Source of the DNA: Simplicispira hankyongi
GTDB lineage: Bacteria; Pseudomonadota; Gammaproteobacteria; Burkholderiales; Burkholderiaceae_C
Direction of reading: 5' to 3'
Length of the DNA stretch: 64,000 nt
Assembly (NCBI RefSeq): GCF_003570885.1
Contig: NZ_QXJC01000010.1
Span: 62,001 to 126,000, forward strand
Made by a program: the position numbers and the translations under genes. This document shows positions 26,187 to 45,066 of the stretch, piece by piece; within the stretch, counting starts at the first letter, position 1; every line of letters begins with the position of its first letter. The notes under the pieces were generated by a model that was not told the origin of the DNA, made no database searches, and worked only from the letters and a program-made list of their open reading frames with translations.

Positions 26187-28097
26187 ATGTGCGGCATCGT
26201 TGGCGCAGTTGCGCTCCATGACATCGTTCCCACCCTCGTCCAGGGCTTGCAGCGCCTCGAATACCGTGGCTACGACTCCTGCGGTGTGGCCATTCACGCC
26301 GCCAGCCTGAATCCCGCCGCCGCCGGAGGCCTGGTGCGCGCGCGCAGCACCCAGCGTGTGGCCGAGTTGTTGGAGCAGGTGCGCACCGAGCACTTGAGCG
26401 GCGGCACCGGCATTGCCCACACCCGCTGGGCCACGCACGGCGCACCTGCGGTGCACAACGCCCATCCGCATTTCAGCCATGGCTGCACGCCGGGCGCCGC
26501 GGAGCAGCCAGGCCGTGTCGCCGTGGTGCACAACGGTATCATTGAAAACTACGAGCAGCTGCGCGAGCGCTTGCAGGCGCGGGGGTACGTGTTTGCCAGC
26601 CAAACCGATACCGAAGTCATTGCCCACCTGATCGACCACCATTACAGCGGCGACCTGTTTGCCGCCGTGCAGGCCAGCATTGCCGAGCTGCGCGGCGCCT
26701 ATGCCATTGCCGTGATGCACAAGGATGAGCCCCACCGCGTGATGGGGGCACGCGCCGGCTCGCCGCTGGTGCTGGGTGTGGGAGCGGGTGGCGAGGCGCA
26801 CTTCCTGGCGAGCGATGCCATGGCGCTGGCCGGCGTCACCGACCAGATCGTCTACCTCGAAGAAGGCGACATTGCCGATCTGCAGCGCGGCCGCTACTGG
26901 ATTGTGGGCAGCAGCGGCAAACCGCTCAGCCAGGGCGATCGCCCGGTGCGCACCGTGCACGCCCACAGCGGCGCGGTGGATCTCGGGCCTTACCGCCACT
27001 ACATGCAAAAGGAAATTTTCGAGCAGCCGCGCGCCATTGCCGACACGCTCGAAGGCGTGGCCGGCATCGTCCCCGAACTTTTCGACGGCCCCGAGCACAA
27101 CGGCGCGCCGGGCGCGGCTGCCTGGCGCGTGTTCGAGCAGATCGACCGCGTGCTGATTCTTGCCTGCGGCACCAGCTACTACAGCGGCTGCACGGCGCGC
27201 TACTGGCTTGAAGACATTGCCGGCATCCCCACCCAGGTGGAAGTGGCGAGCGAATACCGCTACCGCACCAGCGTGCCCGACCCGCGCACCTTGGTGGTCG
27301 TCATCAGCCAGTCGGGCGAAACGGCCGACACGCTCGCTGCCCTGCGCCATGCGCAAAGTCTGGGGATGGAACACACGTTGACCATCTGCAACGTCGCCAC
27401 CAGCGCCATGGTGCGCGAATGCAAGCTGGCCTATGTGACGCGCGCCGGTGTCGAGATAGGCGTGGCCAGCACCAAGGCCTTCACCACGCAGCTTGCCGGC
27501 CTGTTCCTGCTCACGCTCGCGCTGGCGCTGGCCAAGGGGCGCCTGACCCCCGAGCAGGAAGCCGCCCACCTCAAGGCGATGCGCCACCTGCCCGTCGCCT
27601 TGCAGGCGGTGCTGGCGCTGGAACCCCAGCTCATCGCCTGGGCCGAGGATTTCGCCCGCATGGAAAACGCCCTGTTCCTTGGCCGGGGCCTGCATTACCC
27701 GATTGCCATGGAAGGTGCGCTCAAGCTCAAGGAAATCAGCTACATCCACGCCGAGGCCTACCCGGCTGGCGAACTCAAGCACGGCCCGCTGGCGCTGGTG
27801 ACCAGCAGCATGCCGGTGGTGACGGTGGCGCCCAACGACGCGCTCTTGGAAAAGCTCAAAAGCAACATGCAGGAGGTGCGCGCGCGCGGCGGCGTGCTGT
27901 ATGTGCTGGCTGACGCCGATACGCGCATTGCCAACGGCGAGGGCGTGCACGTCATCCGCATGCCCGAGCACTACGGGGCGCTCTCACCCATCCTGCACGT
28001 GGTGCCGCTGCAGTTGCTGGCGTATCACACTGCTCTGGCCAAGGGGACGGATGTGGACAAACCCAGAAACCTGGCGAAGTCGGTTACGGTGGAGTGA
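26187..28097 (+). CDS. glmS: Glutamine-fructose-6-phosphate aminotransferase
   Basis: 636 aa. It makes glucosamine-6-phosphate, the first step to UDP-GlcNAc (see glmU). Cys2 in [12 protein letters not shown] is the N-terminal glutaminase nucleophile; TRWATHGAP and the two SIS domains (about 310-450 and 480-625) with ACGTSYYSG and [10 protein letters not shown] complete the synthase half. The C-terminus [12 protein letters not shown] is almost identical to that of E. coli, and its codons form the binding site of the transposon protein TnsD. The gene is intact, as expected for Tn7-type insertion. Confidence 0.98.
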
Positions 28098-28125: not shown

Positions 28126-28230
28126 TGGGTAATTAAAGTCGTAAACACGCAAATAAAGTCGTAAACAAGCCTCCAGCATTTATGCGGGTTTGCGGGGTGG
28201 TCATTTGTAACAGTAAAGTCGTAAACTCGA
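28126..28230 (+). mobile_element. glmS-proximal end of the Tn7-like transposon with three TnsB-type sites
   Basis: AAAGTCGTAAAC occurs at 28135-28146, 28155-28166 and 28215-28226, each preceded by T or AT. Spacings are 20 and 60 bases, so all sites face the same side of the helix. Tn7 TnsB sites of the form ATAAAGTCTTAAAC differ at a single position. The terminal bases are probably TGGGTAATT from 28126. No inverted partner copies could be found in the window. Confidence 0.85.
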
Positions 28231-28538: not shown

Positions 28539-28764
28539 AGGTGTTCTAGTTCATCGTTGGTTGCCCTCCCGCTGTCTAGGTTGTCGCGCCTACCAATTCG
28601 CGCGCTGGCCTGCAGGCTCCATCATGAGCGACCCAATCCCTACCGAACCAGGGCGTGCCACTGATGCCGTGGCTGCCACCAATTCATACTACAGTAGTTT
28701 CACTATTTTTATGCAGTTTTCTGTATTTATGAGACAATATGACGTTATTAATCCATAAATTTTT

Positions 28765-29046
28765 GTGTCTCAAATACAGGAAGCATTAGGTCAAATCATG
28801 CGGCGGCTACAGGTCTCTGAGGGCCGCCGCCTGACCTATCGCGACCTGGCGCAAATGGCCGGCACCAGCGAGCGGACAATGGCCGAGTGGATGCGCGGCG
28901 CTACCTCGCCCATGGCGATGAACGGTCTGCTCAATTTGATGTCCGCCCTCAAAGCGGACGATGCGATACAGGTGCTGGAGCATTGGCGCGATGCGGCACC
29001 ACATGACCCTATCAGTGCCGAAACGGCCCAGGAGAACCAGAAATGA
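28765..29046 (+). CDS. Small helix-turn-helix protein paired with NADAR
   Basis: 93 aa from a GTG at 28765; an internal ATG at 28799 (MRRLQVSEGRRLTYRDLAQ) is an alternative start. The segment LTYRDLAQMAGTSERTMAEWMRG (about 25-47) is a classic Xre/Cro-type helix-turn-helix. It overlaps the NADAR gene by ATGA, so the two are translationally coupled. It may autoregulate the pair through the palindrome at 28687-28697, or act as a partner of NADAR. The family was not identified beyond the fold. Confidence 0.72.
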   Translation: MSQIQEALGQIMRRLQVSEGRRLTYRDLAQMAGTSERTMAEWMRGATSPMAMNGLLNLMSALKADDAIQVLEHWRDAAPHDPISAETAQENQK

Positions 29047-29639
29047 CCAAAATCAAGATCGAGCCGACTGAAGTGCGCTTCTACCGTGCCAGCGAGAAGC
29101 CGTACGGCGCCCTTAGCAATCTGTACCGGCGTGAGATCGAGTTTGAGGGCGAAAAATTTGCGACCTCCGAGCACGCCTATCAGGCCGGGAAGGCGCGCAA
29201 GCCAGAGGTGCGGAAGTGGTTAATGGAAGCCCCCTCTCCCGCACTGTTGGCCATGGCCGCCCACGGTCTCTACGTCTGGGACATCAACTCCGACTGGTCG
29301 AAGATCAAGTTCGACCGGATGAAGCGCGTTCTTCAGGCCAAGTTCACGCAGCACGAGGATCTGAAGGAACTGCTCCTGAGCACCGGTACGGCGCGCCTGG
29401 TTGAATCAGCCACCGTCAACAATGCCGTGAACCGCCTTTGGGGTGAAGTCAACGGCGTCGGCAAGAACAAGCTGGGCGAACTGCTCATGGAAGTGCGCGC
29501 GGAACTCGCGGCGGCTGCTGCGCCTGTAAAGACCCAGCCCAAGACACCGGTCAAGCGCCGCGCCGCGCGGCCAAGCGCGGCCGTCGACGAAGCGCCTCGG
29601 TCAAAGCTGGGAGCAGCAGCCGAACCCATCGCCGCGTAA
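29043..29639 (+). CDS. NADAR-family protein (YbiA-like, putative ADP-ribosyl glycohydrolase)
   Basis: 198 aa. The NADAR core (about 10-150) shows VRFYRASEKPYGALSNLY, FATSEHAYQAGKARKPEVR with the conserved Glu-His-Ala-Tyr-Gln, and NRLWGEVNGVGKNKLGELLM. Relatives hydrolyse N-glycosidic bonds of ADP-ribosylated guanine or of riboflavin intermediates, and some serve as antidotes or defence factors. The C-terminal 45 residues are Ala/Lys/Pro-rich and probably disordered. Its 3' end overlaps the converging PfkB-type gene by 39 bases, suggesting they arrived as one unit. Confidence 0.82.
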   Translation: MTKIKIEPTEVRFYRASEKPYGALSNLYRREIEFEGEKFATSEHAYQAGKARKPEVRKWLMEAPSPALLAMAAHGLYVWDINSDWSKIKFDRMKRVLQAKFTQHEDLKELLLSTGTARLVESATVNNAVNRLWGEVNGVGKNKLGELLMEVRAELAAAAAPVKTQPKTPVKRRAARPSAAVDEAPRSKLGAAAEPIAA

Positions 29640-30665
29640 GGCCGTCGTCGACGACGTCAGACCGACGTCGTGCGCAAAGCTGCGGAAGGTCTGATCTACG
29701 AACTGGCCCGACCCCGTACGCGCTTGCGTTGCGGAGCGAGCGGCCCGAACGATCTGATCGGGAGACCAGATGGCCAGCAAGCCGCGAGCCCCTTCCGTCA
29801 TGCAGTTCAGGGTCGAGAGCACCTGGCCGAATGCCAGCGCATGCTCGATCGTCTTGCGATCGATGGTCCGAACACCAGCGGCGGCGCCGAACAGTTCGTA
29901 CAGCATGCCAGCGGTACACCAATCGCCAGCGCCGGCGGTGTCGTGGATGAAAGGCAGTCGGAAGGCCGGCAGGTAGGTCCACGAGCGATCCACCTTCCCG
30001 CAACGGAACCGCAGGCCATGCGAGCCACGGGTCTGGATTTCAATGCCGTCGGGCCGCAGGTGGTAGGCGCCCAGATCTCCGAGTCGCTCATCCGCATACT
30101 TGACGATGTGAGCAGCGCGCGCGGCTCTCACGAACAGGCCAACGTCGTCGCCCACAGCCGACGGCTCGAAGACCACGGTCGCACCACAGGACGCGTACTG
30201 CTCAGCGGCCGCCACGCCGAGTCGGGTCGGTCGGTCCAGGTAGAAGACGCTAGCCGGCGGCAAATCGGCTCGGACATCCGCGAACTCGGGATCGTCTTCC
30301 CAGTAAGGGCAGCGTCGGTCGCCACAGTTCGGGCAGGCAAAGGTAAAACGATGTGTCGCATCGTCCTGGGCGGCTTGCCTGTCGAGTTGGTGCTGGAAGA
30401 TCACCGGCGTGGAACGGGCTATGGAGCGCCGCAGCAAACGCGTGTCGGCACCCACGCGCTCGAAGTCGCGTCGTATGGTGTGGCCTGCGGCGTCGTCGCC
30501 CAGCAAGCCCATCGGCGCGGCACCCCAGCCCAGAGCGCCCAGGATTGACAGCACATTACCGGCCGAGCCGCCGAGACTCGGAGTGGCCTTGGAACCGTCC
30601 AGCCGGACGATTACGTCGAGCGCAAACAGACCCGTACCGGCGATGGAGGGGGTTGTAGTCCTCAT
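29601..30665 (-). CDS. PfkB-family sugar/nucleoside kinase with an inserted Cys cluster
   Basis: 354 aa from ATG 30665. The PfkB signatures are present: GGSAGNVLSILGALG (32-46) and DTAGAGDWCTAGMLYEL with the catalytic Asp248. An unusual lid-region insertion holds CPNCGDRRC (Cys111, Cys114, Cys119), which looks metal-binding and is not normal for ribokinases. The enzyme should phosphorylate a sugar or nucleoside with ATP. It is the last gene of the five-gene cargo operon, 22 bases after the unknown gene, and its end overlaps the NADAR gene on the other strand. Confidence 0.85.
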   Translation of the reverse strand: MRTTTPSIAGTGLFALDVIVRLDGSKATPSLGGSAGNVLSILGALGWGAAPMGLLGDDAAGHTIRRDFERVGADTRLLRRSIARSTPVIFQHQLDRQAAQDDATHRFTFACPNCGDRRCPYWEDDPEFADVRADLPPASVFYLDRPTRLGVAAAEQYASCGATVVFEPSAVGDDVGLFVRAARAAHIVKYADERLGDLGAYHLRPDGIEIQTRGSHGLRFRCGKVDRSWTYLPAFRLPFIHDTAGAGDWCTAGMLYELFGAAAGVRTIDRKTIEHALAFGQVLSTLNCMTEGARGLLAIWSPDQIVRAARSATQARTGSGQFVDQTFRSFAHDVGLTSSTTALRGDGFGCCSQL

Positions 30666-30687
30666 GTGCGGGATCTCGGCTGTGTGT

Positions 30688-31743
30688 TTACGGGCGAAGC
30701 CAGATGTGCCAAAGGTGTTCAGGCGGATTTTGCGAAAGGTCGGGGACGGAAGACAACGGGGAGTAGTAACCGATGTTTTCCTCGTACATGATAGGCAAAT
30801 CCTGTTCCATCGCTGCCAGCAACATTCCCACGCTGCCAATCCGGGAGCCAGATGGCGAGAGCACGGTGACCGAGGGCACCGCGCAGGAAGCGGAAAGCGC
30901 ATCCGTGCGGCTGCGGTGAATCCGCATGATCGTCATGCAGACGTCCATCGGATTCGACTCGTGGGCGTAGATAACGTCCAGCAGGTTGACGTTCCAGTCG
31001 TCTAGGAAGGGCCCTTGGAACTCCTTTAAAAGCCTGTCGCCGCGGCGAGGGTCCCAGGACGGGAAAGGAAGAATGGGGCATGTCTCGTCAGGGGCAAGTT
31101 TGCTCTGGATACGGCTTAGTGACGTGACTGCATTTTCTGACAGTTGCGGGATCCACAGCTTGATGGCCTTATCCATCTGATATGTATCCATCACGCCCTG
31201 GAAGCCATGCACAAACTGCGGTGAGTCGCTCGAGGTCGACTGAACCTTGATCGTCGAACAGTTGCGGCCGGCGGTCATGACGTGCGCACAGGCATGACCC
31301 GGCTTCTTCGACTCCTCGAAGACGTACTTCACCACGGGGAAACAGACCCCACGTGACATCGAACTGGCATCGACAAACACGTCGGTGTAACTCTGCTGCA
31401 GAGCCTTCCTGCAAGTTTGAGCAGCCCGCCGTCCAGCCACATTCGCCGTGTCTTCAGACGCCACGATCTCGATCGTTTCGAAAGTCACCTTCCGTTGGGC
31501 TAGCACCTTCATCAGCACATCCTGGTTGCGGACGGCTGCGGCACGCAAAATTTCGGAAACCTCGGGCCGGTCCTCCACGAGAAACAGGAAGTCCACCTGC
31601 GCGAATCCGGCCAGCGTCAGGGGGAAGTGTAGACAGATGTCATTGAAGCCAAGCGTCGCGATGCAGAGCACCTTGCGATCCGCCGTGATGTAGTCGCGGA
31701 AAAATTGGGCGCAGTCCTCGCCCTGGCTGACGATGTGATTCAT
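30688..31743 (-). CDS. Unrecognised 351-aa protein of the cargo operon
   Basis: I do not recognise a family. The N-terminal half looks like a Rossmann-like alpha/beta fold: VLCIATLGFNDICLHFPL near residue 25, FLFLVEDRP near 52 and TDVFVDASSMSRGVCFPVVK near 120, with a Cys-containing loop. The C-terminal half has SWDPRRGDRLLKEF and repeated short strands, without a catalytic motif I can name. There is no membrane segment. It sits three bases after the AAA ATPase and before the kinase, so it probably works with them. It could be a ligand-sensing or substrate-binding subunit. Confidence 0.8.
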   Translation of the reverse strand: MNHIVSQGEDCAQFFRDYITADRKVLCIATLGFNDICLHFPLTLAGFAQVDFLFLVEDRPEVSEILRAAAVRNQDVLMKVLAQRKVTFETIEIVASEDTANVAGRRAAQTCRKALQQSYTDVFVDASSMSRGVCFPVVKYVFEESKKPGHACAHVMTAGRNCSTIKVQSTSSDSPQFVHGFQGVMDTYQMDKAIKLWIPQLSENAVTSLSRIQSKLAPDETCPILPFPSWDPRRGDRLLKEFQGPFLDDWNVNLLDVIYAHESNPMDVCMTIMRIHRSRTDALSASCAVPSVTVLSPSGSRIGSVGMLLAAMEQDLPIMYEENIGYYSPLSSVPDLSQNPPEHLWHIWLRP

Positions 31744-31746
31744 CGG

Positions 31747-33666
31747 CTACGCCCCCTCCCCTGGGACCATCGCCTGCAGCTTGCGAAGTGTGCTCTCAAT
31801 GAAGCCACCGCGGTTGAGCGTGAGCCCATACGCGAGGTTCGGCAGCGCGCCCAATTCCAGCAGGCACCAGACCTTGTTCTTGCAGCGGTAGCCAGGCACG
31901 AACATAAGGGCGTTGTAGGCAAACGCAAAGTGCAGCACGCGTGCCAGGCGCCCGTCGCGCCGCAGGATTGCATCCATCTCCTCCTGCGGGATGCCGATGG
32001 CATTGGCACCCGCGCCGAGCGGTGCATTCCCTTGCAGGGTCTTGGCCAGGCACTGCACGGCAATCTCTTTGACCAGCGCACGGACCACCGCGTTGTATGG
32101 AAAGTCCCAGTCGGCCATCGCTTGCTTGGCCTGCCCCACCAGAGCGACGTGCTGCGCCTTGGGTGCCAAGTAGGGCTCGCGGTTGCGAATCACGCGCGCC
32201 AACAGCTCATCGACCAGCGTGCCGGCTAGGCGAACGAATTGTTCAATGTTCCAGTTGCTGGCCGCGATGAGCTTGTCCATGCCGAAGTAGTACGGCCGCT
32301 CGAACTCGTGCATCAGTTGCACGCGTGCACCCTCCAGAACCGTGGAGTTGACTTTCTTGTCGTCGGAGACCGGCTCGTCCAGCAGCTCATCGTCGCCCAG
32401 AAGATCGATCTGAGGGGTCTTATTCTTCTCCCGATAGATGAGGATCCGCAGTGCCGCCAGCGACTCGTCCGCCAGAGCGTCTTCTCGCACGCGTGCATGC
32501 AGAGACTCCACGAGTGTCTTCGAAAAGCGTGCATCTTGGGCGAGCTTGTCGACCTTCTCCTCGAGCTGCCGATAGACCCCTGGCGCGAGCTCGACCGCAG
32601 CGGTCTGGTTCAGCAGGGGCTTGAGGTCCGAGATGCCGCGGCGGCGAAACTCGGGGATGCTGGCAATGTATCGGCTCGCGATGTCCGTTGCCACATGCTT
32701 GAAGCGCTTTGCGGTCCCCAATTGCATCAGCTTCATGATGTAGTCGCGATCGCGTGTCGACCCCGGCTGCATGTCTTCTTCGGCGATGACGTCCTTGGCC
32801 AGGGCTTCCCGATAGTCGTCGGCCGAGACGATGTCGGGGCGGCACATGAGCCAACGCGAAACGCCCATGGCTTTGGTCTTCAGCCAGTCCCGCAACTGCG
32901 TGAATTGCGTCGGATGCAACTCGTGCGCGTCGTCGACGATGATCATCGGGCGCAGGACGACATCGGTATCGACGGGTGCGTCAGGCGACCCGGGCCAGCG
33001 GCGAACCCGGAAGCCGCGGAGCACTTCGAACACGTCGTAGCTCGTATTCAGAAAGTTCTCGGCCATGTCCTTTTCGTCTGGCGGCACCAGCGAGGTCACG
33101 ATCTTGAAGATGGCCAGCTCAATGCTGCGCGCATACTCGCGGAAGCTCTCCGCGCGATCGGCCGCTGTCGTCGTGAACACCGACTCCGAGTTGGCGCCCA
33201 TCACGATCTCAACATGCTCTAGCGAGACGCCCATCACGTCCAACTGATTGAACCAGCCAAGGACAGCCTTTGACTGCAGGAAGGCGCGCAGCAATGCCAG
33301 CCGCGTCTGCTCCGAATAAGGCAGCTCCCAGATGTCGCGGAAATTGGTCGACATCGCCAAGCGGTGCCCCAGGATGGCCGGCAAGCCGTCCTTGATCAGC
33401 TCGTGGCCCGTGAGCACATCCACGAGATCCCGGTTGATCGGGCTGGCTGTCTCCAAGCACAGGTTGTAGAGCGACTCAAATTCAACGACCTGGGCGATCG
33501 TCGTCTTGCCGCAACCGGGCGTGCCCACCACCAGCGTGAGCTTTTCCAGCAGTTGCTTCTTCTCGGGCTCGAAAAACTCCTCGATGGGGACGGAGCTGAC
33601 GAGCGAGAGCAGCGTTCGCCGGTCGGTGATCAGTTCCGTCCGGCGCTTCTTGAATGGGTTATCCAT
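31747..33666 (-). CDS. AAA/STAND-like ATPase of the cargo operon (ORC/Cdc6-like)
   Basis: 639 aa. Walker A is GTPGCGKTT (48-56) and Walker B is MIIVDDAHE (241-249), followed by an Arg-rich sensor region. The start MDNPFKKRRTELITDRRTLL and the position of the P-loop resemble ORC/Cdc6-type P-loop proteins associated with conflict systems. The C-terminal 350 residues are helical, with no nuclease motif. It overlaps the upstream PRTase gene by 8 bases. A role as an ATP-driven sensor or clamp for the operon's enzymes is inference. Confidence 0.82.
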   Translation of the reverse strand: MDNPFKKRRTELITDRRTLLSLVSSVPIEEFFEPEKKQLLEKLTLVVGTPGCGKTTIAQVVEFESLYNLCLETASPINRDLVDVLTGHELIKDGLPAILGHRLAMSTNFRDIWELPYSEQTRLALLRAFLQSKAVLGWFNQLDVMGVSLEHVEIVMGANSESVFTTTAADRAESFREYARSIELAIFKIVTSLVPPDEKDMAENFLNTSYDVFEVLRGFRVRRWPGSPDAPVDTDVVLRPMIIVDDAHELHPTQFTQLRDWLKTKAMGVSRWLMCRPDIVSADDYREALAKDVIAEEDMQPGSTRDRDYIMKLMQLGTAKRFKHVATDIASRYIASIPEFRRRGISDLKPLLNQTAAVELAPGVYRQLEEKVDKLAQDARFSKTLVESLHARVREDALADESLAALRILIYREKNKTPQIDLLGDDELLDEPVSDDKKVNSTVLEGARVQLMHEFERPYYFGMDKLIAASNWNIEQFVRLAGTLVDELLARVIRNREPYLAPKAQHVALVGQAKQAMADWDFPYNAVVRALVKEIAVQCLAKTLQGNAPLGAGANAIGIPQEEMDAILRRDGRLARVLHFAFAYNALMFVPGYRCKNKVWCLLELGALPNLAYGLTLNRGGFIESTLRKLQAMVPGEGA

Positions 33667-34777
33667 GACTTGAGTGCCTCTTGCGGCGTGCGAACAGCGG
33701 CTTCATGCGCGGCGTTGCTTCTGATTTTGAATCGGCCCAAAGGAGCGCGATCGAGTTGTTAGGCGTGTTGTGCTCAAGAACGAGGGGCAAGCCACACTGC
33801 TTGTAGCCGTACCAAATGTCCTTCTTGGTGTGCTCGTCTTCGATATCAGCGTCGTAGTGCGCCTTGATCAAGGCAGTGAGCCCCGCGTCCTCGCATTGGT
33901 CGTCGATCACCACCTCCGGCGGCAGCACGTATGAGAACGATGTGTCGTACTGGAACAGAGTGAACTCGGGGGCGAAGTCCTTCAGATCCTGCACGATCTG
34001 CGCGCGCGCTTTCGCTGATGCAAGGTGATGATGGACATGCAGCATGCAATCCTTGGCCAAAAATTTGCCGAAGCGATCCACGCTGGACTCGCAGAACTTC
34101 TTAATCTTGCCGCCCCACCCCTTCTCTAGATCGTTGCGAAGAAGTGATGAGCCAGATCCCGAGAAGTCATCGACCAAGCAGATTGCCTCGAACGTCGCGC
34201 TAGCCTCCACGGCCTCTTGGCTCAATCCCAATGCCTTGAGGCTCTTCCGAAGTTCCTTCTGCAAATCCTCCCACTTGGCAGTAGTGATCTCGCTGAATGC
34301 GACCACTTGCTCGTTGGAGACCTTGCCTTCGTTGTAGCGCCGGAAGACGTCGATGCGCGCGCCATCGCTCAAGCCGACATAGAGCGTGCGACGGAGCAAC
34401 TGCGCGACGCGGTCGATGGCGGCCTGGTCGATGTACGTCTTGTACAGCGGGATCTGCATTTCCTTTGCAACACGGTGATGCGCGTTGCGCTCGATGGTGG
34501 GCATCATCAAGCTTACAAGGTGGTGCATCTCGCGCTGGCTCACATAGGCCAGCCGGTCCTTGACGAACTGGTAAGCGGTCTTCTTTTCCGCCATAGTCGA
34601 GAACTGGCTGAGCCAGTTCAGCAGGTTGACGTGAAACCGCGTGCCCGGCTGGAAGCCCTGGTAGCCGTCGTACTTGTGGTCGATCATCAGTTGCAGCTCG
34701 CGGAACTCCTTCGCGAAATCTGCATCCGTCCAGTTGAGCTGTTCGCCGATGAATTTAAAGGCCGTCTCGTGCTTCAT
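33659..34777 (-). CDS. Phosphoribosyltransferase-like protein of the cargo operon
   Basis: 372 aa. The diagnostic segment ICLVDDFSGSGSSLL (199-213) is the PRPP-binding loop of type I phosphoribosyltransferases (two acidic residues, then Ser-Gly-Ser-Gly). The flanking N-terminal region is helical, and the C-terminus is basic (RRKRHSSHG). Canonical enzymes move a ribose-phosphate between PRPP and a base; the substrate here is unknown. Such PRTase-like proteins are found beside HAD and ATPase genes in predicted nucleotide-metabolite and defence modules. It lies 20 bases after the SIS-HAD gene and overlaps the ATPase gene. Confidence 0.8.
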   Translation of the reverse strand: MKHETAFKFIGEQLNWTDADFAKEFRELQLMIDHKYDGYQGFQPGTRFHVNLLNWLSQFSTMAEKKTAYQFVKDRLAYVSQREMHHLVSLMMPTIERNAHHRVAKEMQIPLYKTYIDQAAIDRVAQLLRRTLYVGLSDGARIDVFRRYNEGKVSNEQVVAFSEITTAKWEDLQKELRKSLKALGLSQEAVEASATFEAICLVDDFSGSGSSLLRNDLEKGWGGKIKKFCESSVDRFGKFLAKDCMLHVHHHLASAKARAQIVQDLKDFAPEFTLFQYDTSFSYVLPPEVVIDDQCEDAGLTALIKAHYDADIEDEHTKKDIWYGYKQCGLPLVLEHNTPNNSIALLWADSKSEATPRMKPLFARRKRHSSHG

Positions 34778-34797
34778 GGGGTGTTCAGGATCGAAGG

Positions 34798-36786
34798 CTA
34801 CGTGCCGAACAGGGCCGCCGGCAGTAGCCGGAACGCGCTACCGTGGCGTGAGAGACCGCGCAGGTAGGTACTGGTCACATCGACCTGGTTGCTGCCCGAC
34901 GCACCAAAATTCCAGCACGTGGCCAGGTCGACCGACACGCGCTCACAGCTCAGGCTCAGGCCTTCGCTCAACAGCTCGTAATCGTTGCCTCCCTCATGAC
35001 CGGCGTCGCCCAAGCGCAGGATCTCGGTGTTCGGGTCGATCTGGCACTGGGAAGCGACGTGGGCAACGATCTTTCTTTTCGATGTGTCCGCGTCCAGGAT
35101 ATCGATGGAGTGTCCGGAGCTGAAGGCGCGCCAGCCGCGCAAGCCGTTGCGCTCCAGCCAGTGCTGGACGGCCACGAGCAAGCGGGAGCATTCATGGGCG
35201 CTATCCAGGCGGATGCTAAGCTGACCGCCGCGGGCCAGATCCGACAAAGGCTTGCAGTGCTGGTGGTATACCGACTTCTGGAGCCAATCCCACAGATCCT
35301 GGAAGGCGGCGTTGGCCGGCGGCTGCTCGAAAGGTTCGTCCAGCCGGGCAATCAGCGACCCGCTGTAGTAGCCCACGGTGATGGCGCTGTGCAGCTCGGG
35401 GGCAAATCTATTGCGCAAGTCGTCATACAGAGAGTTCCCTCGACCCGTCGCGATGGCCAGCACCATGCCCTGGCGGAGCAGCGAAGACACCTGTTCTGCA
35501 TGCTCGACGGCCATCGGATCAAAACGGTTTTCGGCCCGGCACAAGGTGCCGTCGAAGTCGCAGACGATCGCTTTGACCTCGGCCCGGGTCAGGGTGTCGG
35601 CATAGTCGGCTGCAGCCGCCACGACACTGGGCTTCGCCGCCCGTTCGCGCCGACCTTGTGGAGCCTCCTTGCGGCGCGCCGCGAGCTCCAGCCGGCTCTG
35701 CACCTTGGGCAAGGATTGCAACACGGATGCCGAATCGATGGCGTGAATGGCACGCCCGAATTCCGGCACCTCCGGCTGGCCAGGATCAAAGCCGGCCGCC
35801 TGCGCAAAGGCATCGGTCACGAACATGGCATCGATCAGGCCCGCGATTGCCGTGTCTTGCTCGCGCAGACCATCAAGCTCGATCGTCCATTGCTGCACGG
35901 TGGGCGGCAGCAGTTGAGCCGTGGCAGCGGCGAGCGGGGCTTCCTCGGCCGACGTCACCAGGACCACCGCCATTGGGGAATGCGCTGCGAGCTGCAGATG
36001 CCGGCCGTGGGCGAACTGGCGCAGGTCCGCTAGCTGCACATGGGCGAGCGCAGCCTCGGCAAATTTCGACTCCAAGTCCATCGCGAACGGCTTGGCCTGG
36101 GCCGAGAACAGGACCAGCACGCCAGACCGGCACGCGCGCTCGAGCCCTGTCCACGAGCGGAAATGATCGCGGCGTGCGGCAAGCCGCCCCGGGTGGAACA
36201 GAGGCCCGAGCTGCGCCATGAAATCGTTGTGGCCGAAAAACGCGCGGTAGGCCAACATGCTGGTGGCCAGCAGTGAGTTCGTCGCTAGGTAGCCGTCCTT
36301 GCCCCAGTCCATCTGGAAGGCAAAGGCTCGCAGCGATGTATGCGCGGCGGCGAACTCGAGCAGCGGGTTCGATGTCGTGAGGACCAGCGCGGCACTGCTG
36401 AGGTCGGCGGCCTGCGCAGCGTGGGCTGCCGCGAGCACATCTCGGTTCTTGCCCTCAGCCGACAGTAGCAGTGCGTGCGGCGAGAGCCGACGCAGCATGG
36501 CCTCGAACTCGAGCGGGGTGACCGCCGAAGTGGGGGAATGATGGACAAGCTCACGGAACAGGGCGACGACGAACGCCGCTGAGTACGAGCCACCAGAGCC
36601 GACCACGGCCACATGATCTCCACTCCACCGACTCAGAAAACGACGCAGTTGATCAACCGGCTGCTCACCGACCCACTGAAAGGTACGAGCAAAGCCATCC
36701 AGCTCGTCCGAATATGGTTTGCCCAAAAGCGCTCCTTTTTGCCAAACTGTTGCATTATCGCGTTGTCGACGCTGAAGACTTGCCAT
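34798..36786 (-). CDS. SIS domain - HAD phosphatase fusion of the cargo operon
   Basis: 662 aa from ATG 36786 (a TTG five codons upstream is weaker). The N-terminal half carries a double SIS fold like the GlmS isomerase half: VVGSGGSYSAAF (61-72), LVLTTSNPL and the ESKFAEAALAHVQL helix (239-252). The C-terminal half is a Cof-type HAD phosphatase: CDFDGTLC (409-416) with catalytic Asp410 and Asp412, ATGRG motif II, a conserved Lys before IVAHV, and GDAGHEGGND (593-602). This pairs a phosphosugar-binding or isomerase module with a phosphatase. It is the first gene of the five-gene operon, divergent from tnsD. Confidence 0.83.
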   Translation of the reverse strand: MASLQRRQRDNATVWQKGALLGKPYSDELDGFARTFQWVGEQPVDQLRRFLSRWSGDHVAVVGSGGSYSAAFVVALFRELVHHSPTSAVTPLEFEAMLRRLSPHALLLSAEGKNRDVLAAAHAAQAADLSSAALVLTTSNPLLEFAAAHTSLRAFAFQMDWGKDGYLATNSLLATSMLAYRAFFGHNDFMAQLGPLFHPGRLAARRDHFRSWTGLERACRSGVLVLFSAQAKPFAMDLESKFAEAALAHVQLADLRQFAHGRHLQLAAHSPMAVVLVTSAEEAPLAAATAQLLPPTVQQWTIELDGLREQDTAIAGLIDAMFVTDAFAQAAGFDPGQPEVPEFGRAIHAIDSASVLQSLPKVQSRLELAARRKEAPQGRRERAAKPSVVAAAADYADTLTRAEVKAIVCDFDGTLCRAENRFDPMAVEHAEQVSSLLRQGMVLAIATGRGNSLYDDLRNRFAPELHSAITVGYYSGSLIARLDEPFEQPPANAAFQDLWDWLQKSVYHQHCKPLSDLARGGQLSIRLDSAHECSRLLVAVQHWLERNGLRGWRAFSSGHSIDILDADTSKRKIVAHVASQCQIDPNTEILRLGDAGHEGGNDYELLSEGLSLSCERVSVDLATCWNFGASGSNQVDVTSTYLRGLSRHGSAFRLLPAALFGT

Positions 36787-37131
36787 GGGCAAGGCGCCCA
36801 ACTTTCGACGCTGTAGTTAGGTCAGCCCTAGACAGGGTCTTTCAGTTTGCTTGACGTTAACGCTATTAACCCGAGATCATCGGCTCGGAGTCCGAGCGCC
36901 ATCCGGCCCGCAATCTCGGCCGTTTGACAGCAGCCCAGTCTGGGGGCGCGCGTCCAACTGCTACGGTGAGCGACCGCTATTCGTCTACGAAACCGTGAAC
37001 ACGCGCCTCCGTGTCGAGTGACAGCAAACGCTGCATTTCTGCCACCGGCGCAAGTCGATCGCAGCGACGACTTGCAATATCCCTAAGCGAGGCACCTTGT
37101 GCTGCGGCCTCGTTCGGAATAGCCTACCGTA
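36787..37131. other. Divergent promoter region between cargo operon and tnsD
   Basis: 345 bases without a convincing gene. It contains GTTAA-CGCTA-TTAAC (36856-36870) and CTCGGA-G-TCCGAG (36884-36896), two palindromes that may be operators of the element's Xre proteins. Promoters for both directions should lie here, but no strong -10/-35 pair is clear. Confidence 0.55.
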
Positions 37132-38865
37132 ATGCCAGAAACGGACAGGCTTTTTCCCGGATACCAACTTCTGTCCTGGCTGCCTGACGAGACATTCTTC
37201 AGTCTCGTAAGCCGTCATCACCAGCTTTGGGGGCACGTCACATCTGCGCAAACCTGCCAACTGATCTTCGGCAGTACACGCGCTGGCACCCATCATGATT
37301 TACCTAACAGTCTGGGTGCCTTCGCGCAGCGCACGAACCGATTCCTTGGCGAAGTCGATTCCATAGCGAAAGAGCGGACACTGCTCAAGTTCTACGCTGC
37401 CTTCACTCCTGCATCCGAGACAGAAAACGCAGTCGCGTGCATGTCCAGCGCCAGTGTGGCCCATCTGAAGCTGCGCCTGGGTATCCTCACGAGCCGCTTT
37501 CGTGCGAACCATCCCCTCAAAGCATGCCCGCACTGCATGGAAAAGGACCTACGCGAGACTGGATGGGCGTACTGGCATCTGAAGCACCAGTTTCCCGGCG
37601 TATGGATATGCACAACACACCAGCAACCGCTCTTGCAGTCCGCTCTCAAAGCCAATGGAGTAGATCGCTTTCAATGGCTTTTGCCTCGCTTGAGCGAATT
37701 GAATCCTGCATGTGCGGCGCCTGAAGAGGCAAGTTCTCATTCGGTGCTCTTGAGTCTCGCTGAACTCGTTGAGCACCTCATCCAATCAGGATCAAAGCAA
37801 CCACTGCAGTTTGGAAAACTCCACGAGGTCTACCGCCCGGAGCTGCATCAGCGTAGCTGGATCGCTGGTGCTGCCAATCTGCGCATGGCACAGATCGTGC
37901 CCGCCTTTCTCAACTACTGCGAGCCGCTCAGGCACATCCCAGAATTCGCGGCGCTCGCCGAAAACGACGCGGATATGAGGGCGCAGCTGAGTCGCCTGCT
38001 GCGACCACCTCGCACTGGTACACACCCGCTCAGACACATCCTGCTAATTCATTGGCTGTTTGGCGATGGCCACCGATTTGATCTCGTGAGGTCCGAAGGA
38101 GGCAATGGTGCGGTGTGCACGCAAGACGGTTCTCCGCCGGTAGCACCTGTCGTTGATTTACGAATGGACTACCTATGCAGACTGATTCGGGATCAAGGAC
38201 ATTCGGTGCGCAAGGCAGCGAGCTTGGTGGGCGTTGATCCGCAAACAGCTCTGGTCTGGGCGGCAAGGGCTGGAATCGCTGTGTCACGTAGGCCCCAGAA
38301 ACTTTCGGCAGAAGTACGTTCCAAGGCGCTCCGGGAGCTGCGCAAAGGTGCGGAAAAGGCGCAGGTAGCCTCTCGAGCGGGCGTCTCCGTCGGGACCATC
38401 ACTCGGCTGTTGCTGAGTGACACCAGGTTGCATGCGGACTGGGCCGAGGCGCGAAGCGAAAAGATGAGAGCCCATTCGCGGTCCCTGTGGCTTCAACTTC
38501 TGGAGTCTTCCGGATGTCTCGGCATCAAATGGATGCGCCAGCTGGATCCCCGCACCTATATCTGGCTCTATCGCAACGACCGCGCATGGCTGGATGCACA
38601 CAGACCAGACGCTGTGGCGCAGCGTCCAAGGCATTCTTCTGTCGACTGGCAGGCCAGAGACGAACATCTGCGCGACTTGGTGCGCAAAGCCGCTCTGCGC
38701 CTCATGGACAACGATGACGTGAGGCGCATCCATTTCTGGCAGTTGTGCCAGCAAATACCTGACCTACGCGCAAAGCAGGCATCACTGCACCGTTTACCCC
38801 GAACCCTTGAAGCCATCAAGGCGGCGCTGACAGCGCATCGCTCTCCCCAGGATCTTTTTCGCTGA
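37132..38865 (+). CDS. tnsD: TnsD-like target-selection protein (TniQ family)
   Basis: 577 aa. The TniQ N-terminal domain (FPGYQLLSWLPDETFFSLVS) leads to a zinc ribbon with CPHC (132-135) and CTTH (160-163). The long C-terminal part is TnsD-specific: YIWLYRNDRAWLDAHRPD, then VDWQARDEHLRDLVRKAALR, lines up with the Tn7 TnsD C-terminus. Tn7 TnsD binds the end of glmS and directs insertion next to it, which fits this element's location. It is slightly longer than Tn7 TnsD (508 aa). It is transcribed away from the cargo operon. Confidence 0.92.
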   Translation: MPETDRLFPGYQLLSWLPDETFFSLVSRHHQLWGHVTSAQTCQLIFGSTRAGTHHDLPNSLGAFAQRTNRFLGEVDSIAKERTLLKFYAAFTPASETENAVACMSSASVAHLKLRLGILTSRFRANHPLKACPHCMEKDLRETGWAYWHLKHQFPGVWICTTHQQPLLQSALKANGVDRFQWLLPRLSELNPACAAPEEASSHSVLLSLAELVEHLIQSGSKQPLQFGKLHEVYRPELHQRSWIAGAANLRMAQIVPAFLNYCEPLRHIPEFAALAENDADMRAQLSRLLRPPRTGTHPLRHILLIHWLFGDGHRFDLVRSEGGNGAVCTQDGSPPVAPVVDLRMDYLCRLIRDQGHSVRKAASLVGVDPQTALVWAARAGIAVSRRPQKLSAEVRSKALRELRKGAEKAQVASRAGVSVGTITRLLLSDTRLHADWAEARSEKMRAHSRSLWLQLLESSGCLGIKWMRQLDPRTYIWLYRNDRAWLDAHRPDAVAQRPRHSSVDWQARDEHLRDLVRKAALRLMDNDDVRRIHFWQLCQQIPDLRAKQASLHRLPRTLEAIKAALTAHRSPQDLFR

Positions 38866-38931
38866 TGCCAGCACTGTCTTATCTGCATTCACGGGTTGAT
38901 ATGCGGATATGCAATGGGTTATGCTTATTGC

Positions 38932-39261: not shown

Positions 39262-39280
39262 CTTGAACAGGAGGTGGCCG

Positions 39281-40666
39281 ATGAATATGCTTGTGCAGCC
39301 AGCACCCTTGCCAGAGGAGATGGATCGCGGCTACTTGGGGCGGATCATGCGGATCAACCGGTACAGTTCCCCGAAGGACATGGTCGAGGCGATTGCAGCG
39401 CACTTGGGCGAGGAAGGGCGGACGCGCCGTGAAGTGACGACGCATGAGCTGCTTGGCCGCATGGCCGGAATGAACTCAGAACAGTTTGCGCAACGCCACA
39501 CGACCCTGCCGTTGCGCAGGGGAATCACGTCCTATTTTCCAAGCCTTGTCCATGGTGGTGAAGAAAGAAGGTCGCTGCTTTACAACAGCGCCAGTTTGCG
39601 CAAAGGCCAGGTAGCCTTCTTCTGCAAGGAATGCGTGGAGGCAGATATTCGTTTTCATGGGACGAGCTACTGGCGTCGGGATCTGCAGACACCGGGCCAG
39701 ATATGGTGTCCCAAGCATTTGACGCCTTTGTACTTCGTTGCTTCAGCGGATCCATTTATTGCATCCCCTTCCATGGCTATGGAGGTTGCAGATCAGATCC
39801 CAGAAGAGTGGGTGAAACCAGCCATCGGCAACGCTTATGTAGAGCGGTTCTTGGAGCTGGCTGCTGCGCTCTATGATCGTGCAGCGCCGTTGGACGTCGC
39901 TCTCATCGCCCCCTTGCTCCGGGATGCGGGAAGTGAGCAGAGTTTCAAGGCCAACGCTTCTTCAAAGCAAGGGACGCTGATCAGTGACCGCATGAAAGAG
40001 CTGTTTCCTGAGCAGTGGCTGAGCACCGTGTTCCATGAACTGGTCGTAAAAGCTCCGGGTGCGTATCTCCACCAAGTGGATGGGACGCTCTACTTGCGCA
40101 AGTCGGCTTCGTCTGTGATTGCATACATACTGGTGCTGTCAGTGCTGTTTGAAAGCGCCGACCAGGCCATCAATGCACTGGTTGACGCTTGCAATGGAAA
40201 AGTGGTACCTGCCAGGCGTCCACGATCAGCGAAGCACAGTGTTCCGGAAATGGATGAGCTCCTTGGGTACTATGCTGCTGCGAAGGGCGCGCATGCCGAG
40301 GTTGCCCGGCTGCTTGAGCTACCGGTTCACGTGGTCCGCAAGACCTTGTGCGATCTCGGTTTGCCCAGCCTGCCTGAGTGTGATGCGACGTCGGAGATCG
40401 GCGCTGTTGCTGCTTTGCGGGCGTACTACCTGGATAAGCGTTCCTACATCTCATGCCTGAAAATCTCCGGTATGACAGAAGCGCGCTTCGATACGCTGAT
40501 GCGTCAGTGCGGCCCGAACCTGGCCATGGCCCTTGTTCGGATGACTCCGAAGACCAGGATCCGGCCAAGGGCACGGCAAGCGAAAGGGCTACTGCCTCAT
40601 CAGCGCCTGGCGACTGCGGCCGCACCTTCCGTCAATCAACTGCGTGAAACACTGCTCCAGAACTGA
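39281..40666 (+). CDS. tniQ: Second TniQ-family protein (alternative target selector)
   Basis: 461 aa from ATG 39281, preceded by AGGAGGTGG at good spacing. The TniQ zinc ribbon is FCKECVEADIRFHG (Cys115, Cys118) with WCPKHLTPL (Cys143, His146). The N-terminus (EEMDRGYLGRIMRINRYSS) is typical of shorter TniQ proteins, but the C-terminal half differs from the TnsD-like protein. A second TniQ usually opens another target pathway, such as plasmids or a different chromosomal site. Its 3' end overlaps the converging tnsC by 31 bases. Confidence 0.9.
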   Translation: MNMLVQPAPLPEEMDRGYLGRIMRINRYSSPKDMVEAIAAHLGEEGRTRREVTTHELLGRMAGMNSEQFAQRHTTLPLRRGITSYFPSLVHGGEERRSLLYNSASLRKGQVAFFCKECVEADIRFHGTSYWRRDLQTPGQIWCPKHLTPLYFVASADPFIASPSMAMEVADQIPEEWVKPAIGNAYVERFLELAAALYDRAAPLDVALIAPLLRDAGSEQSFKANASSKQGTLISDRMKELFPEQWLSTVFHELVVKAPGAYLHQVDGTLYLRKSASSVIAYILVLSVLFESADQAINALVDACNGKVVPARRPRSAKHSVPEMDELLGYYAAAKGAHAEVARLLELPVHVVRKTLCDLGLPSLPECDATSEIGAVAALRAYYLDKRSYISCLKISGMTEARFDTLMRQCGPNLAMALVRMTPKTRIRPRARQAKGLLPHQRLATAAAPSVNQLRETLLQN

Positions 40667-44173: not shown

Positions 44174-45066
44174 GCTGACCTCCGCGCCAAGATGGGGTTC
44201 AGAGAAGCAAACGCTTCTACAGAGAGCAAGGTCAAAGGTTGGGAAGGCCTCCATCCCCGACGGAGATCGACAGGCAGCAAACCATGCCATACTGCTTGCC
44301 ACAGCGCTCGCTGCGCTGCGTGTCGTTGTGTCTCACCGCCGAAGCTATCTGTGAGCTGATGAATCACATCTGAGTACGGGTGCGAGGGCATGGAGCGAGC
44401 CGTCTGGCACGCGATCCGTATTTCCCTCTCGGACGCTGGATCGTCGAATCCCCATGGTGAAGTTCGGCGAAGGGTAAGGGCCACACTCTTTTCGTATTGC
44501 TCTGGAGTGATGAGCAGCCAATCCACGCCCCGGTGCGCCCAGTAGGTCTTCTCCAGGAGCAGTAGTTCCTTGGCGCGTTCGGTGAGGACGCTCGATGGTT
44601 TGCAGGAAACTGCGAGAAGTTCCAGCCTTTCGTGTTGATTTCGGAGGATCAACAGCAAGTCGGTGGTACTGGTCCATATGTGGGTTTGGTCGCCGTCAGC
44701 CAGCGCTGGGTGTTTGATGCCAAGTATTTCGGCAATCTCTCGTGTCCCAGGGAATTGCTTTAGCCCCTCACCCACATGCCAACGAGAGAGGTCATGTGGG
44801 GCACTTTCCTGGTTCAGCGGAAACTGCTCAGCGAGGTCGACCAAGTTCGGAATCAGGCCTGCGAAATTCAGGCCCCCCCATTCTTGGTCTGAGAGAAGTT
44901 CGCGCTGCCGGTCGCGCCAGACGATCAAATGGGAACGCCCTTTGCTGGATGGATCGCCTCGCGATACCCTGTGCCAGGGTATGTAGTCGGCATAGCTGCC
45001 GGTGCCTCGTCCCTCCCTTAGAAAGCGTTCGAGGACCTTCGGAGTGAAACGTTTTTCGGTCCTCAT
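44164..45066 (-). CDS. tnsA: TnsA-type endonuclease
   Basis: 300 aa. The restriction-enzyme-like fold supplies Glu in LVDLAEQFPL, Asp in TSTTDLLLILRN and Lys in LLAVSCKPSS, matching the E-D-xK catalytic set of TnsA. A C-terminal winged helix follows, as in the family. TnsA cuts the 5' ends, making transposition cut-and-paste rather than replicative. It heads tnsABC and follows a small gene by an ATGA overlap. Confidence 0.9.
   Translation of the reverse strand: MRTEKRFTPKVLERFLREGRGTGSYADYIPWHRVSRGDPSSKGRSHLIVWRDRQRELLSDQEWGGLNFAGLIPNLVDLAEQFPLNQESAPHDLSRWHVGEGLKQFPGTREIAEILGIKHPALADGDQTHIWTSTTDLLLILRNQHERLELLAVSCKPSSVLTERAKELLLLEKTYWAHRGVDWLLITPEQYEKSVALTLRRTSPWGFDDPASEREIRIACQTARSMPSHPYSDVIHQLTDSFGGETQRHAAQRALWQAVWHGLLPVDLRRGWRPSQPLTLLSVEAFASLNPILARRSACI

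What the first reader, a model, noticed from the sequence alone, without database searches (positions are those of the whole stretch)
28690..36801. Undescribed-looking cargo system: SIS-HAD, PRTase-like, AAA ATPase, unknown protein and PfkB kinase, facing an HTH-NADAR pair
Five minus-strand genes are packed with gaps of 20, -8, 3 and 22 bases, and the last overlaps NADAR on the other strand. Four of them handle phosphorylated sugars, PRPP or nucleosides: SIS plus HAD phosphatase, PRTase, PfkB kinase, with NADAR acting on ADP-ribose-type bonds. An ATPase and an unrecognised protein complete the set. I know of no named system with this exact composition. It could build, sense or remove a nucleotide-like molecule, perhaps as anti-phage defence carried by a transposon.
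Basis: partly seen in the sequence, partly recalled or inferred. Interest (0 to 1): 0.88.

Follow-up and report, generated by a model that had tools for sequence, protein, structure and literature searches.

The report
CARF-gated PRTase defence cassette
A mobile element carries a tightly packed five-gene set, found together in bacteria of many phyla, that looks like an anti-virus or self-poisoning system in which a nucleotide-sensor pair controls a sugar-phosphate-transferring enzyme; its chemistry is unknown and untested.

Summary
All five minus-strand genes occur together in 86 of 100 loci examined; 11 of the 14 others end at a contig edge.

The "unrecognised" protein belongs to PADLOC's CARF6 family (499 bits). 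The ATPase is ORC-CDC6-like. The PRTase belongs to Pfam PRTase-CE, the family of the type III-A retron effector.

PRTase, ATPase and CARF are contiguous in 95 of 96 loci. Relatives of this block stand alone or carry another first enzyme (HD-CE, metallophosphoesterase): an effector-ORC-CARF6 triad with interchangeable effectors. SIS-HAD plus PfkB forms a second module. NADAR is optional (41 of 100) and the most conserved protein. A NADAR gene also follows PRTase-CE in an unrelated Hma-like operon.

Best reading: a CARF/ATPase sensor-switch gating a PRPP-using toxic effector, with SIS-HAD, PfkB and NADAR clearing its product. Composition and modularity are shown. Defence, ligand and target are inferred.

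SIS-HAD and PfkB match no PADLOC model, and ten literature searches showed no such gene set. Pfam and PADLOC have already catalogued the triad's parts, so this is a new variant of a known kind.

The parts
34798..36801 (-). SIS-HAD fusion: N-terminal sugar-isomerase-like part, C-terminal HAD-IIB (Cof/SPP-type) phosphatase
   Evidence: Pfam Hydrolase_3 6.7e-8; solved structures 3mpo 5.6e-7 (HAD) and 3hba 3.7e-5 (SIS); D415, D417, K575, D599 invariant in 12 aligned (their role as HAD residues is recalled)
33659..34777 (-). PRTase-CE family phosphoribosyltransferase-like protein, proposed effector
   Evidence: PF24390 1.1e-18; PADLOC PRTase_III-A 1.5e-17; PRPP-loop-like motif in 100 of 100 sequences labelled cassette members, by a pattern written from recall (one of the 100, L017, is a lone PRTase)
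31747..33666 (-). ORC-CDC6-like AAA+ ATPase, proposed switch
   Evidence: PF24389 5.2e-7, 29.2 bits against cut-off 27; G51, G53, K54, T55 and D245, D246 invariant in 80 aligned
30688..31743 (-). CARF6-family protein, proposed nucleotide sensor
   Evidence: PADLOC CARF6 model PDLC01916 1.8e-150, residues 3-350 of 351; 73 of 73 aligned members match CARF6 models, 16 also a CARF1_HEPN model
29601..30665 (-). PfkB-family sugar or nucleoside kinase
   Evidence: PfkB 9.2e-9; fructokinase structure 5ey7 4.5e-21; D242, G245, G247, D248 invariant in 12 aligned
29043..29639 (+). NADAR (YbiA-type) N-glycosidase-like protein, facultative partner
   Evidence: NADAR 6.7e-26; E. coli YbiA structure 2b3w 4.7e-29; NADAR in 41 of 100 loci
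28765..29046 (+). small HTH protein next to NADAR
   Evidence: HTH_31 1.2e-4, below its cut-off; a cluster of similar small proteins beside the cassette in 8 other loci (likeness to the window's judged by eye)
26187..28097 (+). glmS, chromosomal neighbour of the element
   Evidence: SIS 1.4e-49 plus glutamine amidotransferase domain
28131..28230 (.). three copies of a 20-base repeat with core TAAAGTCGTAAAC, the first starting 34 bases past the end of glmS: candidate transposase sites at one end of the element
   Evidence: three exact copies of the core here; counted with up to 3 mismatches the window total (4) is not above the shuffle mean (2.55; 26 of 100 shuffles reach 4). Opposite end not found
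37132..38865 (+). TnsD-type target selector
   Evidence: TnsD 2.8e-56
39263..40666 (+). second TniQ-family protein
   Evidence: TniQ 1.4e-12
40636..41937 (-). TnsC-like ATPase
   Evidence: AAA_22 7e-9; role from position
41915..44302 (-). TnsB-like transposase
   Evidence: no Pfam hit at 0.001; assigned from position and from tblastn matches in L019, L027, L030 and L035
44164..45066 (-). TnsA-like endonuclease
   Evidence: Tn7_TnsA-like_N 2.7e-7

Best explanation
The cassette is a two-module conflict system, most likely anti-phage. Module 1 is an effector-ORC-CARF6 triad. The CARF6 protein senses a nucleotide-type ligand that appears during infection, the ORC-CDC6-like AAA+ ATPase is the switch, and the PRTase is the effector, which uses PRPP to transfer phosphoribose to, or otherwise disable, an essential nucleotide or nucleobase target. 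Module 2 (SIS-HAD, PfkB and, where present, NADAR) breaks down, recycles or resets the phosphoribosyl product, or keeps it in check in healthy cells. The element is a Tn7-like transposon at glmS.

Shown: membership of sequence families, operon structure, the two-module organisation, exchange of effectors in related triads, the PRTase-NADAR pairing elsewhere, no match to one Cas10 and one SMODS model in the host, and mobility. Inferred: that CARF is the sensor, that PRTase is the toxic part, what it modifies, that module 2 is protective, and that phages are the trigger.
For: (1) PRTase, AAA and CARF are contiguous in that order in 95 of 96 loci having all three (the other has a split AAA), while SIS-HAD sits before or after the block. 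Pairwise-identity correlations over 67 loci are higher inside the modules (PRT-CARF 0.90, AAA-CARF 0.87, PRT-AAA 0.79; SIS-HAD-PfkB 0.83) than across them (0.59-0.72) (no phylogenetic control). (2) Two plasmids carry two divergent triads (AAA 27%, CARF 29-31% identical) beside a single SIS-HAD and PfkB. (3) The triad stands alone in L138; the first gene is HD-CE in L171 and L173 and a metallophosphoesterase in L172, each followed by ORC-CDC6-like and CARF6; L175 has the same genes as L172 by ORF list. (4) Of 18 PRTase-CE loci over cut-off in 398 genomes, 9 are PRTase plus reverse transcriptase with no CARF match in the stretch read (two of the nine are on contigs under 7.1 kb); RT_III-A matches 2 of 2 scanned. 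PRTase is called a probable retron effector, mode unknown, and PRTase plus DprA protects against T7 and lambda (passage of PMC9122126; passages of PMC12548924). (5) A NADAR gene also follows PRTase-CE in an HmaA-HmaB-DUF499 operon (L135, L136; Pfam and PADLOC run on L135). (6) No PF22335 (Cas10) or PF18144 (SMODS) match in the host; Csm1 over cut-off in 1 of 32 host genomes of relatives.
Against: CARF and PRTase have no convincing sequence match among solved structures. The CARF label rests on PADLOC models; Pfam does not recognise it above cut-off. No nuclease or classic toxin was recognised, so the effector role of the PRTase is by analogy, and I did not test whether the DprA-linked PRTase is of this family. 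My PRPP-motif pattern matched only 3 of 9 retron and 0 of 2 Hma-like PRTases, so chemistry may differ between contexts or the pattern may be too strict. Several parts are ordinary metabolic enzymes. The proposed sensor and switch are not the fastest-evolving parts: median identities are SIS-HAD 0.32, PfkB 0.33, CARF 0.37, AAA 0.39, PRTase 0.43, so no arms-race signature points to CARF or AAA. NADAR is missing in 59 of 100 loci, though some contigs end early. PfkB is missing in L015, L104 and L149 without a contig end to explain it, so module 2 is not fixed. ORC-CDC6-like is not always in a triad: of 11 genomes matched I read 9, of which 3 are cassettes, 5 are triads and 1 (L174) is a kinase fusion without one. 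I ran no controlled test of enrichment in defence islands.
Confidence: 0.48

Rival explanations
1. Signal-synthesis reading, as proposed for Ter systems: PRTase, SIS-HAD and PfkB together make a nucleoside- or nucleotide-like messenger that the CARF protein senses, and the ATPase or an unknown host part is the effector.
For: PRTase plus HAD as makers of a nucleoside or nucleotide derivative is the model quoted for Ter systems (passage of PMC7824862). A CARF sensor is encoded with the enzymes, and no Cas10 (PF22335) or SMODS match is present in the host.
Against: PRTase-CE occurs without a CARF match beside retron reverse transcriptases and in Hma-like operons. Triads exist without SIS-HAD and PfkB (L138) or with other enzymes in place of the PRTase. 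The window PRTase hit PRTase-CE and no other PRTase family of Pfam at E up to 1.
Confidence: 0.2
2. Metabolic or repair operon: salvage or clearance of an unusual sugar phosphate, N-glycoside or glycated compound, carried as fitness cargo and not directed at phages.
For: SIS, HAD, PfkB and NADAR are metabolic or repair families. NADAR, the slowest-evolving partner (median pairwise identity 0.68 against 0.29-0.41 for the other proteins in the same pairs), suggests a constant substrate. CARF and AAA are not the fastest-evolving parts.
Against: Sparse distribution (SIS-HAD family at 1e-20 in 6 of 398 Pseudomonadota), no transporter inside the cassette, a CARF-family protein, a PRTase of a retron effector family, and transposon and plasmid carriage.
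Confidence: 0.17
3. Accessory effector of type III CRISPR: CARF answers cyclic oligoadenylate made by Cas10 elsewhere in the cell.
For: CARF domains are the cyclic-oligoadenylate sensors of type III systems (recalled), and the family cross-matches CARF1_HEPN (16 of 73) and Csx1 (3 of 73) models.
Against: No PF22335 match in the host. Csm1 (TIGR02578) matched 2 of 32 host genomes of relatives, 1 of them over cut-off. No other Cas10 model was tried.
Confidence: 0.05

Closest known systems
Effector-ORC-CARF6 triads (Pfam PF24389 ORC-CDC6-like, PF24390 PRTase-CE, PF24391 HD-CE; PADLOC CARF6 models)
   Same: Same gene order and families for PRTase, ATPase and CARF; the three Pfam accessions are consecutive, so the set was probably curated from one source that I could not identify.
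   Different: Adds SIS-HAD and PfkB, and in 41 of 100 loci NADAR; neither SIS-HAD nor PfkB has a PADLOC match at E up to 1.
Retron type III-A
   Same: PRTase of the same Pfam family and PADLOC model set (PRTase_III-A).
   Different: No match to nine such reverse transcriptases in any of 101 cassette records searched; CARF and ATPase instead.
PRTase-DprA defence system (PMC9122126, one passage read)
   Same: PRTase as proposed effector with a separate regulator.
   Different: Regulators are ORC-CDC6-like plus CARF6, not DprA; the window PRTase matched only PRTase_III-A models in PADLOC. Family of the DprA-linked PRTase not tested.
DarT1-NADAR and YarT-YbiA toxin-antitoxin pairs (PMC11125620, passages read)
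   Same: A NADAR next to a sugar-transferring enzyme; the window's is YbiA-like.
   Different: No ADP-ribosyltransferase among the Pfam hits of the cassette genes.
Ter-associated nucleoside-like metabolite module (PMC7824862, passages read)
   Same: PRTase plus HAD phosphatase in a stress or phage-related operon.
   Different: CARF and ORC-CDC6-like in place of Ter proteins; PRTase family is PRTase-CE.

Membership tests
CARF superfamily (CARF6) | Full-length match to CARF family models | tested here: met
   PDLC01916 1.8e-150 over residues 3-350; 73 of 73 aligned members match CARF6
CARF superfamily (CARF6) | Rossmann-like CARF fold in a structure | tested here: inconclusive
   no convincing structure match by sequence; prediction unavailable
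CARF superfamily (CARF6) | Binds a cyclic oligonucleotide or other nucleotide ligand | not testable with these tools
   needs binding assays
Effector-ORC-CARF6 triad | Effector gene, ORC-CDC6-like ATPase and CARF6 gene contiguous in that order | tested here: met
   window gene order; 95 of 96 loci. The window ATPase only just passes PF24389 (29.2 bits against 27), and the host was not reported in the whole-genome search at 1e-6
Retron type III-A | PRTase of the PRTase_III-A set | tested here: met
   PDLC02935 1.5e-17
Retron type III-A | Retron reverse transcriptase in the locus | tested here: not met
   no tblastn hit at 1e-5 with nine RTs in window 20001-50000 or 100 other loci
Type III CRISPR-Cas | Cas10 in the genome | tested here: not met
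   PF22335 absent in host; no other Cas10 model tried there
CBASS | SMODS-type nucleotidyltransferase | tested here: not met
   PF18144 absent in host
NADAR toxin-antitoxin (DarT1 or YarT type) | Adjacent ADP-ribosyltransferase toxin | tested here: not met
   no ADP-ribosyltransferase among Pfam hits of the 10 proteins scanned
Ter-associated module | A PRTase of the families used in Ter modules | tested here: not met
   only PRTase-CE and three unrelated weak hits at E up to 1; that Ter PRTases have Pfam families of their own is recalled
Ter-associated module | TerB, TerC or TerD genes in the genome | not tested
   -
Tn7-like transposon | TnsABC plus TnsD or TniQ, at glmS | tested here: met
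   TnsA-like, AAA, TnsD, TniQ and glmS matches; the first end repeat starts 34 bases past glmS; TnsB assigned by position and tblastn only
Tn7-like transposon | Paired ends and target duplication | tested here: inconclusive
   repeat array at one end only
Any named system in PADLOC or NCBIfam | Models for SIS-HAD and PfkB within a defence system | tested here: not met
   0 PADLOC families for both at E up to 1; of the ten proteins scanned only NADAR passed an NCBIfam cut-off, riboflavin-intermediate N-glycosidase

The most novel reading that the evidence does not exclude
A reversible phosphoribosylation immune system: once CARF and the ATPase fire, the PRTase attaches phosphoribose from PRPP to a nucleobase or amine of a nucleotide or nucleic acid. 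NADAR cleaves that N-glycosidic bond, and the kinase (PfkB) with the SIS-HAD enzyme removes rearranged or released sugar adducts, as the kinase-deglycase pairs of glycation-product catabolism do (FrlD/FrlB, recalled). This would be a new type of effector chemistry with its own antidote, matching the PRTase-NADAR pairing seen independently in the Hma-like operons.
Probability: 0.15. Interest if true: 0.92.

Novelty: new variant of a known kind. Interest (0 to 1): 0.72.

Why it matters
PRTase effectors occur in type III-A retrons and in a PRTase-DprA system, and the retron PRTases' mode of action was called unknown (PMC9122126). This cassette places such a PRTase beside enzymes whose substrate classes are known (N-glycosidase, sugar kinase, phosphatase, sugar isomerase), so the PRTase product could be deduced from what these partners accept. 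That makes an open question directly testable. It also points to CARF sensing apart from CRISPR, through an interchangeable effector-ATPase-CARF design.

Tried and rejected
Literature: ten searches listed no paper that I could recognise as describing this gene set. For 'PRTase-CE', none of the 25 papers listed of 148 holds the term. Ten papers were opened for passages only; none was read whole. Three papers were not held, among them the CARF census that I recall as the likely source of the CARF6 name.

Single-protein patterns for CARF found nothing in genome contigs or viral contigs; a PRTase alignment worked. No relatives in annotated phage records for AAA or CARF. GlmS against the SIS-HAD profile gave only a weak SIS alignment. 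The opposite transposon end was not found. Dropped: an arms-race argument (CARF and ATPase evolving fastest), because one search does not bear it out; I lowered the best explanation from 0.50 to 0.48 and raised the metabolic rival from 0.15 to 0.17 for that reason. Dropped: a controlled defence-island test, because the family tool lists only 25 families per call.

Rows dropped before counts: L001, L002, L014 (decayed copy), L018 (overlaps L007) and L021 (near-copy of L005) are outside the 100 loci. X-containing members were left out, and short ones. Gene starts are my choice among ATGs, so gap medians depend on it. The nine RT-linked PRTase loci were recognised first by eye; RVT_1 was confirmed by Pfam in L139, L141, L144 and L145 and similarity in all nine by phmmer. 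G643 and G737 were not read.


Full report
What is in the window. Five minus-strand genes run from 36801 down to 29601 with gaps of 20, -8, 3 and 22 bases, facing a plus-strand HTH-NADAR pair whose last gene overlaps PfkB. Pfam gives HAD (6.7e-8), PRTase-CE (1.1e-18), ORC-CDC6-like (5.2e-7), PfkB (9.2e-9) and NADAR (6.7e-26); the protein at 30688-31743 has no Pfam match over cut-off. PADLOC names that protein CARF6 at 1.8e-150 over its whole length. All 73 aligned members, the window's included, match CARF6 models, 16 also match a CARF1_HEPN model and 3 match Csx1. Solved structures support the SIS-HAD, PfkB and NADAR calls; none gives a convincing match to CARF or PRTase.

Setting. The genes lie next to glmS with TnsD, TniQ, TnsC-like, TnsB-like and TnsA-like genes. 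Three copies of a 20-base repeat begin 34 bases past the end of glmS; the other end was not found. GC is 0.616 in the cassette and 0.571 in the tns genes, against 0.66-0.68 in the flanks. The host genome has one CARF copy. Of 106 loci checked, the window included, 13 hold matches at 1e-6 to Tn7- or Tni-type genes, some of them weak, and L035 also has both a TnsD match and glmS. Seventeen plasmid records hold PRTase, AAA and CARF matches, one of them decayed (L014).

Co-occurrence. A PRTase-alignment scan of the genome collection (84,980 species) found 323 relatives; the best 80 plus 3 viral-contig loci were examined. Of the 83, AAA is found in 81, SIS-HAD in 81, CARF in 80, PfkB in 72 and NADAR in 34. 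By record title, or my reading of it, they come from Proteobacteria, Planctomycetota, Actinobacteria, Chloroflexi, Bacteroidota, Gemmatimonadota, Verrucomicrobia and others. With the window and 16 plasmid loci, 86 of 100 loci have all five genes. Of the 14 others, 11 are cut by a contig end (locus ranges) and 3 are not: L015 and L104 lack PfkB, and L017 is a lone PRTase. Median gaps between neighbours are -4 to +6 bases in the commonest order. NADAR is on the opposite strand in 32 and on the same strand in 9 of 41 loci. Turned round, the SIS-HAD family at 1e-20 occurs in 6 of 398 Pseudomonadota genomes: 4 in the five-gene set, 1 (L149) in a set with NADAR but no PfkB, and 1 on a 4-kb contig with CARF and PfkB.

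Two modules. PRTase-AAA-CARF stay together in 95 of 96 loci while SIS-HAD changes sides. Pairwise identities over 67 loci correlate better within the modules (0.79-0.90, and 0.83) than across them (0.59-0.72). The margin is small for some pairs, and there is no phylogenetic control. Two rhizobial plasmids hold two triads with one SIS-HAD and PfkB; the triads are diverged (PRT 38-41%, AAA 27%, CARF 29-31%), and each is closer to its counterpart on the other plasmid (AAA 35 and 52%, CARF 38 and 48%, PRT 43 and 58%) than to its neighbour. NADAR pairs have a median identity of 0.68, against 0.29-0.41 for the other proteins of the same loci. Over all 67 loci SIS-HAD (0.32) and PfkB (0.33) are less conserved than CARF (0.37) and AAA (0.39), which does not support an arms race at the proposed sensor.

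What the modules do elsewhere. Of 18 PRTase-CE loci over cut-off in 398 genomes, 4 hold the five-gene set, 1 holds SIS-HAD, PRTase, AAA, CARF and NADAR without PfkB (L149), 1 is a bare PRTase-ORC-CARF6 triad (L138), 2 are Hma-like operons with HmaA-like helicase, PRTase-CE, NADAR, an HmaB-like methylase and DUF499 (family scans on L135; L136 by likeness), 9 are reverse-transcriptase pairs and 1 is unassigned. ORC-CDC6-like was matched in 11 of the 398. I read nine: three are cassettes, five are triads (L138; HD-CE in L171 and, just over cut-off, in L173; a metallophosphoesterase in L172 and L175), and one (L174) is a kinase fusion without a triad. In L173 the triad sits beside PDC-M33 genes and a cytosine methylase. 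Hence the first gene is exchangeable, as effectors are, while ORC and CARF are the constant pair.

Why PRTase is the likely effector. One paper says that some PRTases are probable retron effectors of unknown action and that a PRTase with DprA protects against T7 and lambda (passage of PMC9122126); another describes PRTase as the usual type III-A effector (passages of PMC12548924). DefensePredictor's legend to its figure of validated systems lists PRTase among its abbreviations (passages of PMC13092281). PRTase-CE occurs without a CARF match in the retron loci, so it need not make the CARF ligand. Against this, my recalled PRPP-loop pattern is met by 100 of 100 PRTases labelled cassette (one of them, L017, a lone PRTase) but by only 3 of 9 retron and 0 of 2 Hma-like ones. 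A FastTree tree groups those 100 together, with modest support of 0.63, apart from the 9 retron ones at 0.95.

Why NADAR matters. NADARs hydrolyse guanine-ADP-ribose bonds, act as antitoxins and are annotated as N-glycosidases linked to riboflavin synthesis (passages of PMC11125620). A PRTase makes N-glycosidic or similar bonds (general knowledge). The same pairing in two unlike settings, and the strict conservation of NADAR, suggest that it acts on what the PRTase makes. This is inference. The two NADARs are distant relatives, and NADAR is absent from 59 of 100 loci, so it is not essential everywhere.

Signals. Type III CRISPR and CBASS are poor sources of a CARF ligand here: PF22335 and PF18144 find nothing in the host. 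Csm1 matches 2 of 32 hosts of relatives, 1 over cut-off. Only these models were used.

Novelty. The window's SIS-HAD and PfkB match no PADLOC model, and none of the ten proteins scanned except NADAR passes an NCBIfam cut-off. Ten literature searches listed no paper that I recognised as describing the set, but many relevant papers are not in the library. The consecutive Pfam names ORC-CDC6-like, PRTase-CE and HD-CE and the CARF6 models show that others have seen the triad's parts, so the new element is the five-gene extension and its partner NADAR. I file it as a new variant of a known kind.

Noticed in passing
L135 7246-9035 and L136 7477-9267: PRTase-CE followed by a NADAR gene inside an operon with HmaA-like helicase, HmaB-like methylase and DUF499: the PRTase-NADAR pairing in a second, unrelated defence-like setting.
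   Followed up: partly
L173 530-4016: HD-CE (just over cut-off), ORC-CDC6-like and CARF6 triad in a genome of the same family as the window's host, beside PDC-M33 genes and a C-5 cytosine methylase.
   Followed up: partly
L172 4912-9370 (and L175): Calcineurin-like phosphoesterase ahead of ORC-CDC6-like and CARF6: another effector type for the triad.
   Followed up: partly
L174 5994-9713: A 1239-aa protein joining a weak protein-kinase match to an ORC-CDC6-like domain, without a triad.
   Followed up: no
L015, L104, L149: Subtype with NADAR as first gene of the operon and no PfkB (NADAR, SIS-HAD, PRTase, AAA, CARF).
   Followed up: no
L007 and L008: Two diverged PRTase-AAA-CARF triads sharing one SIS-HAD and PfkB on rhizobial plasmids.
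   Followed up: yes
11 loci, e.g. L005 5626-6738: A protein annotated RHE_PE00001 or DUF1612 recurs beside rhizobial cassettes; role unknown.
   Followed up: no
L014 9986-17534: A decayed copy of the cassette in a Rhizobium plasmid, with PRTase, CARF and SIS-HAD each broken into pieces.
   Followed up: no
window 38896-39261 and 45375-45857: Two further HTH genes in or near the transposon, one between the TnsD and TniQ genes and one beyond tnsA.
   Followed up: no
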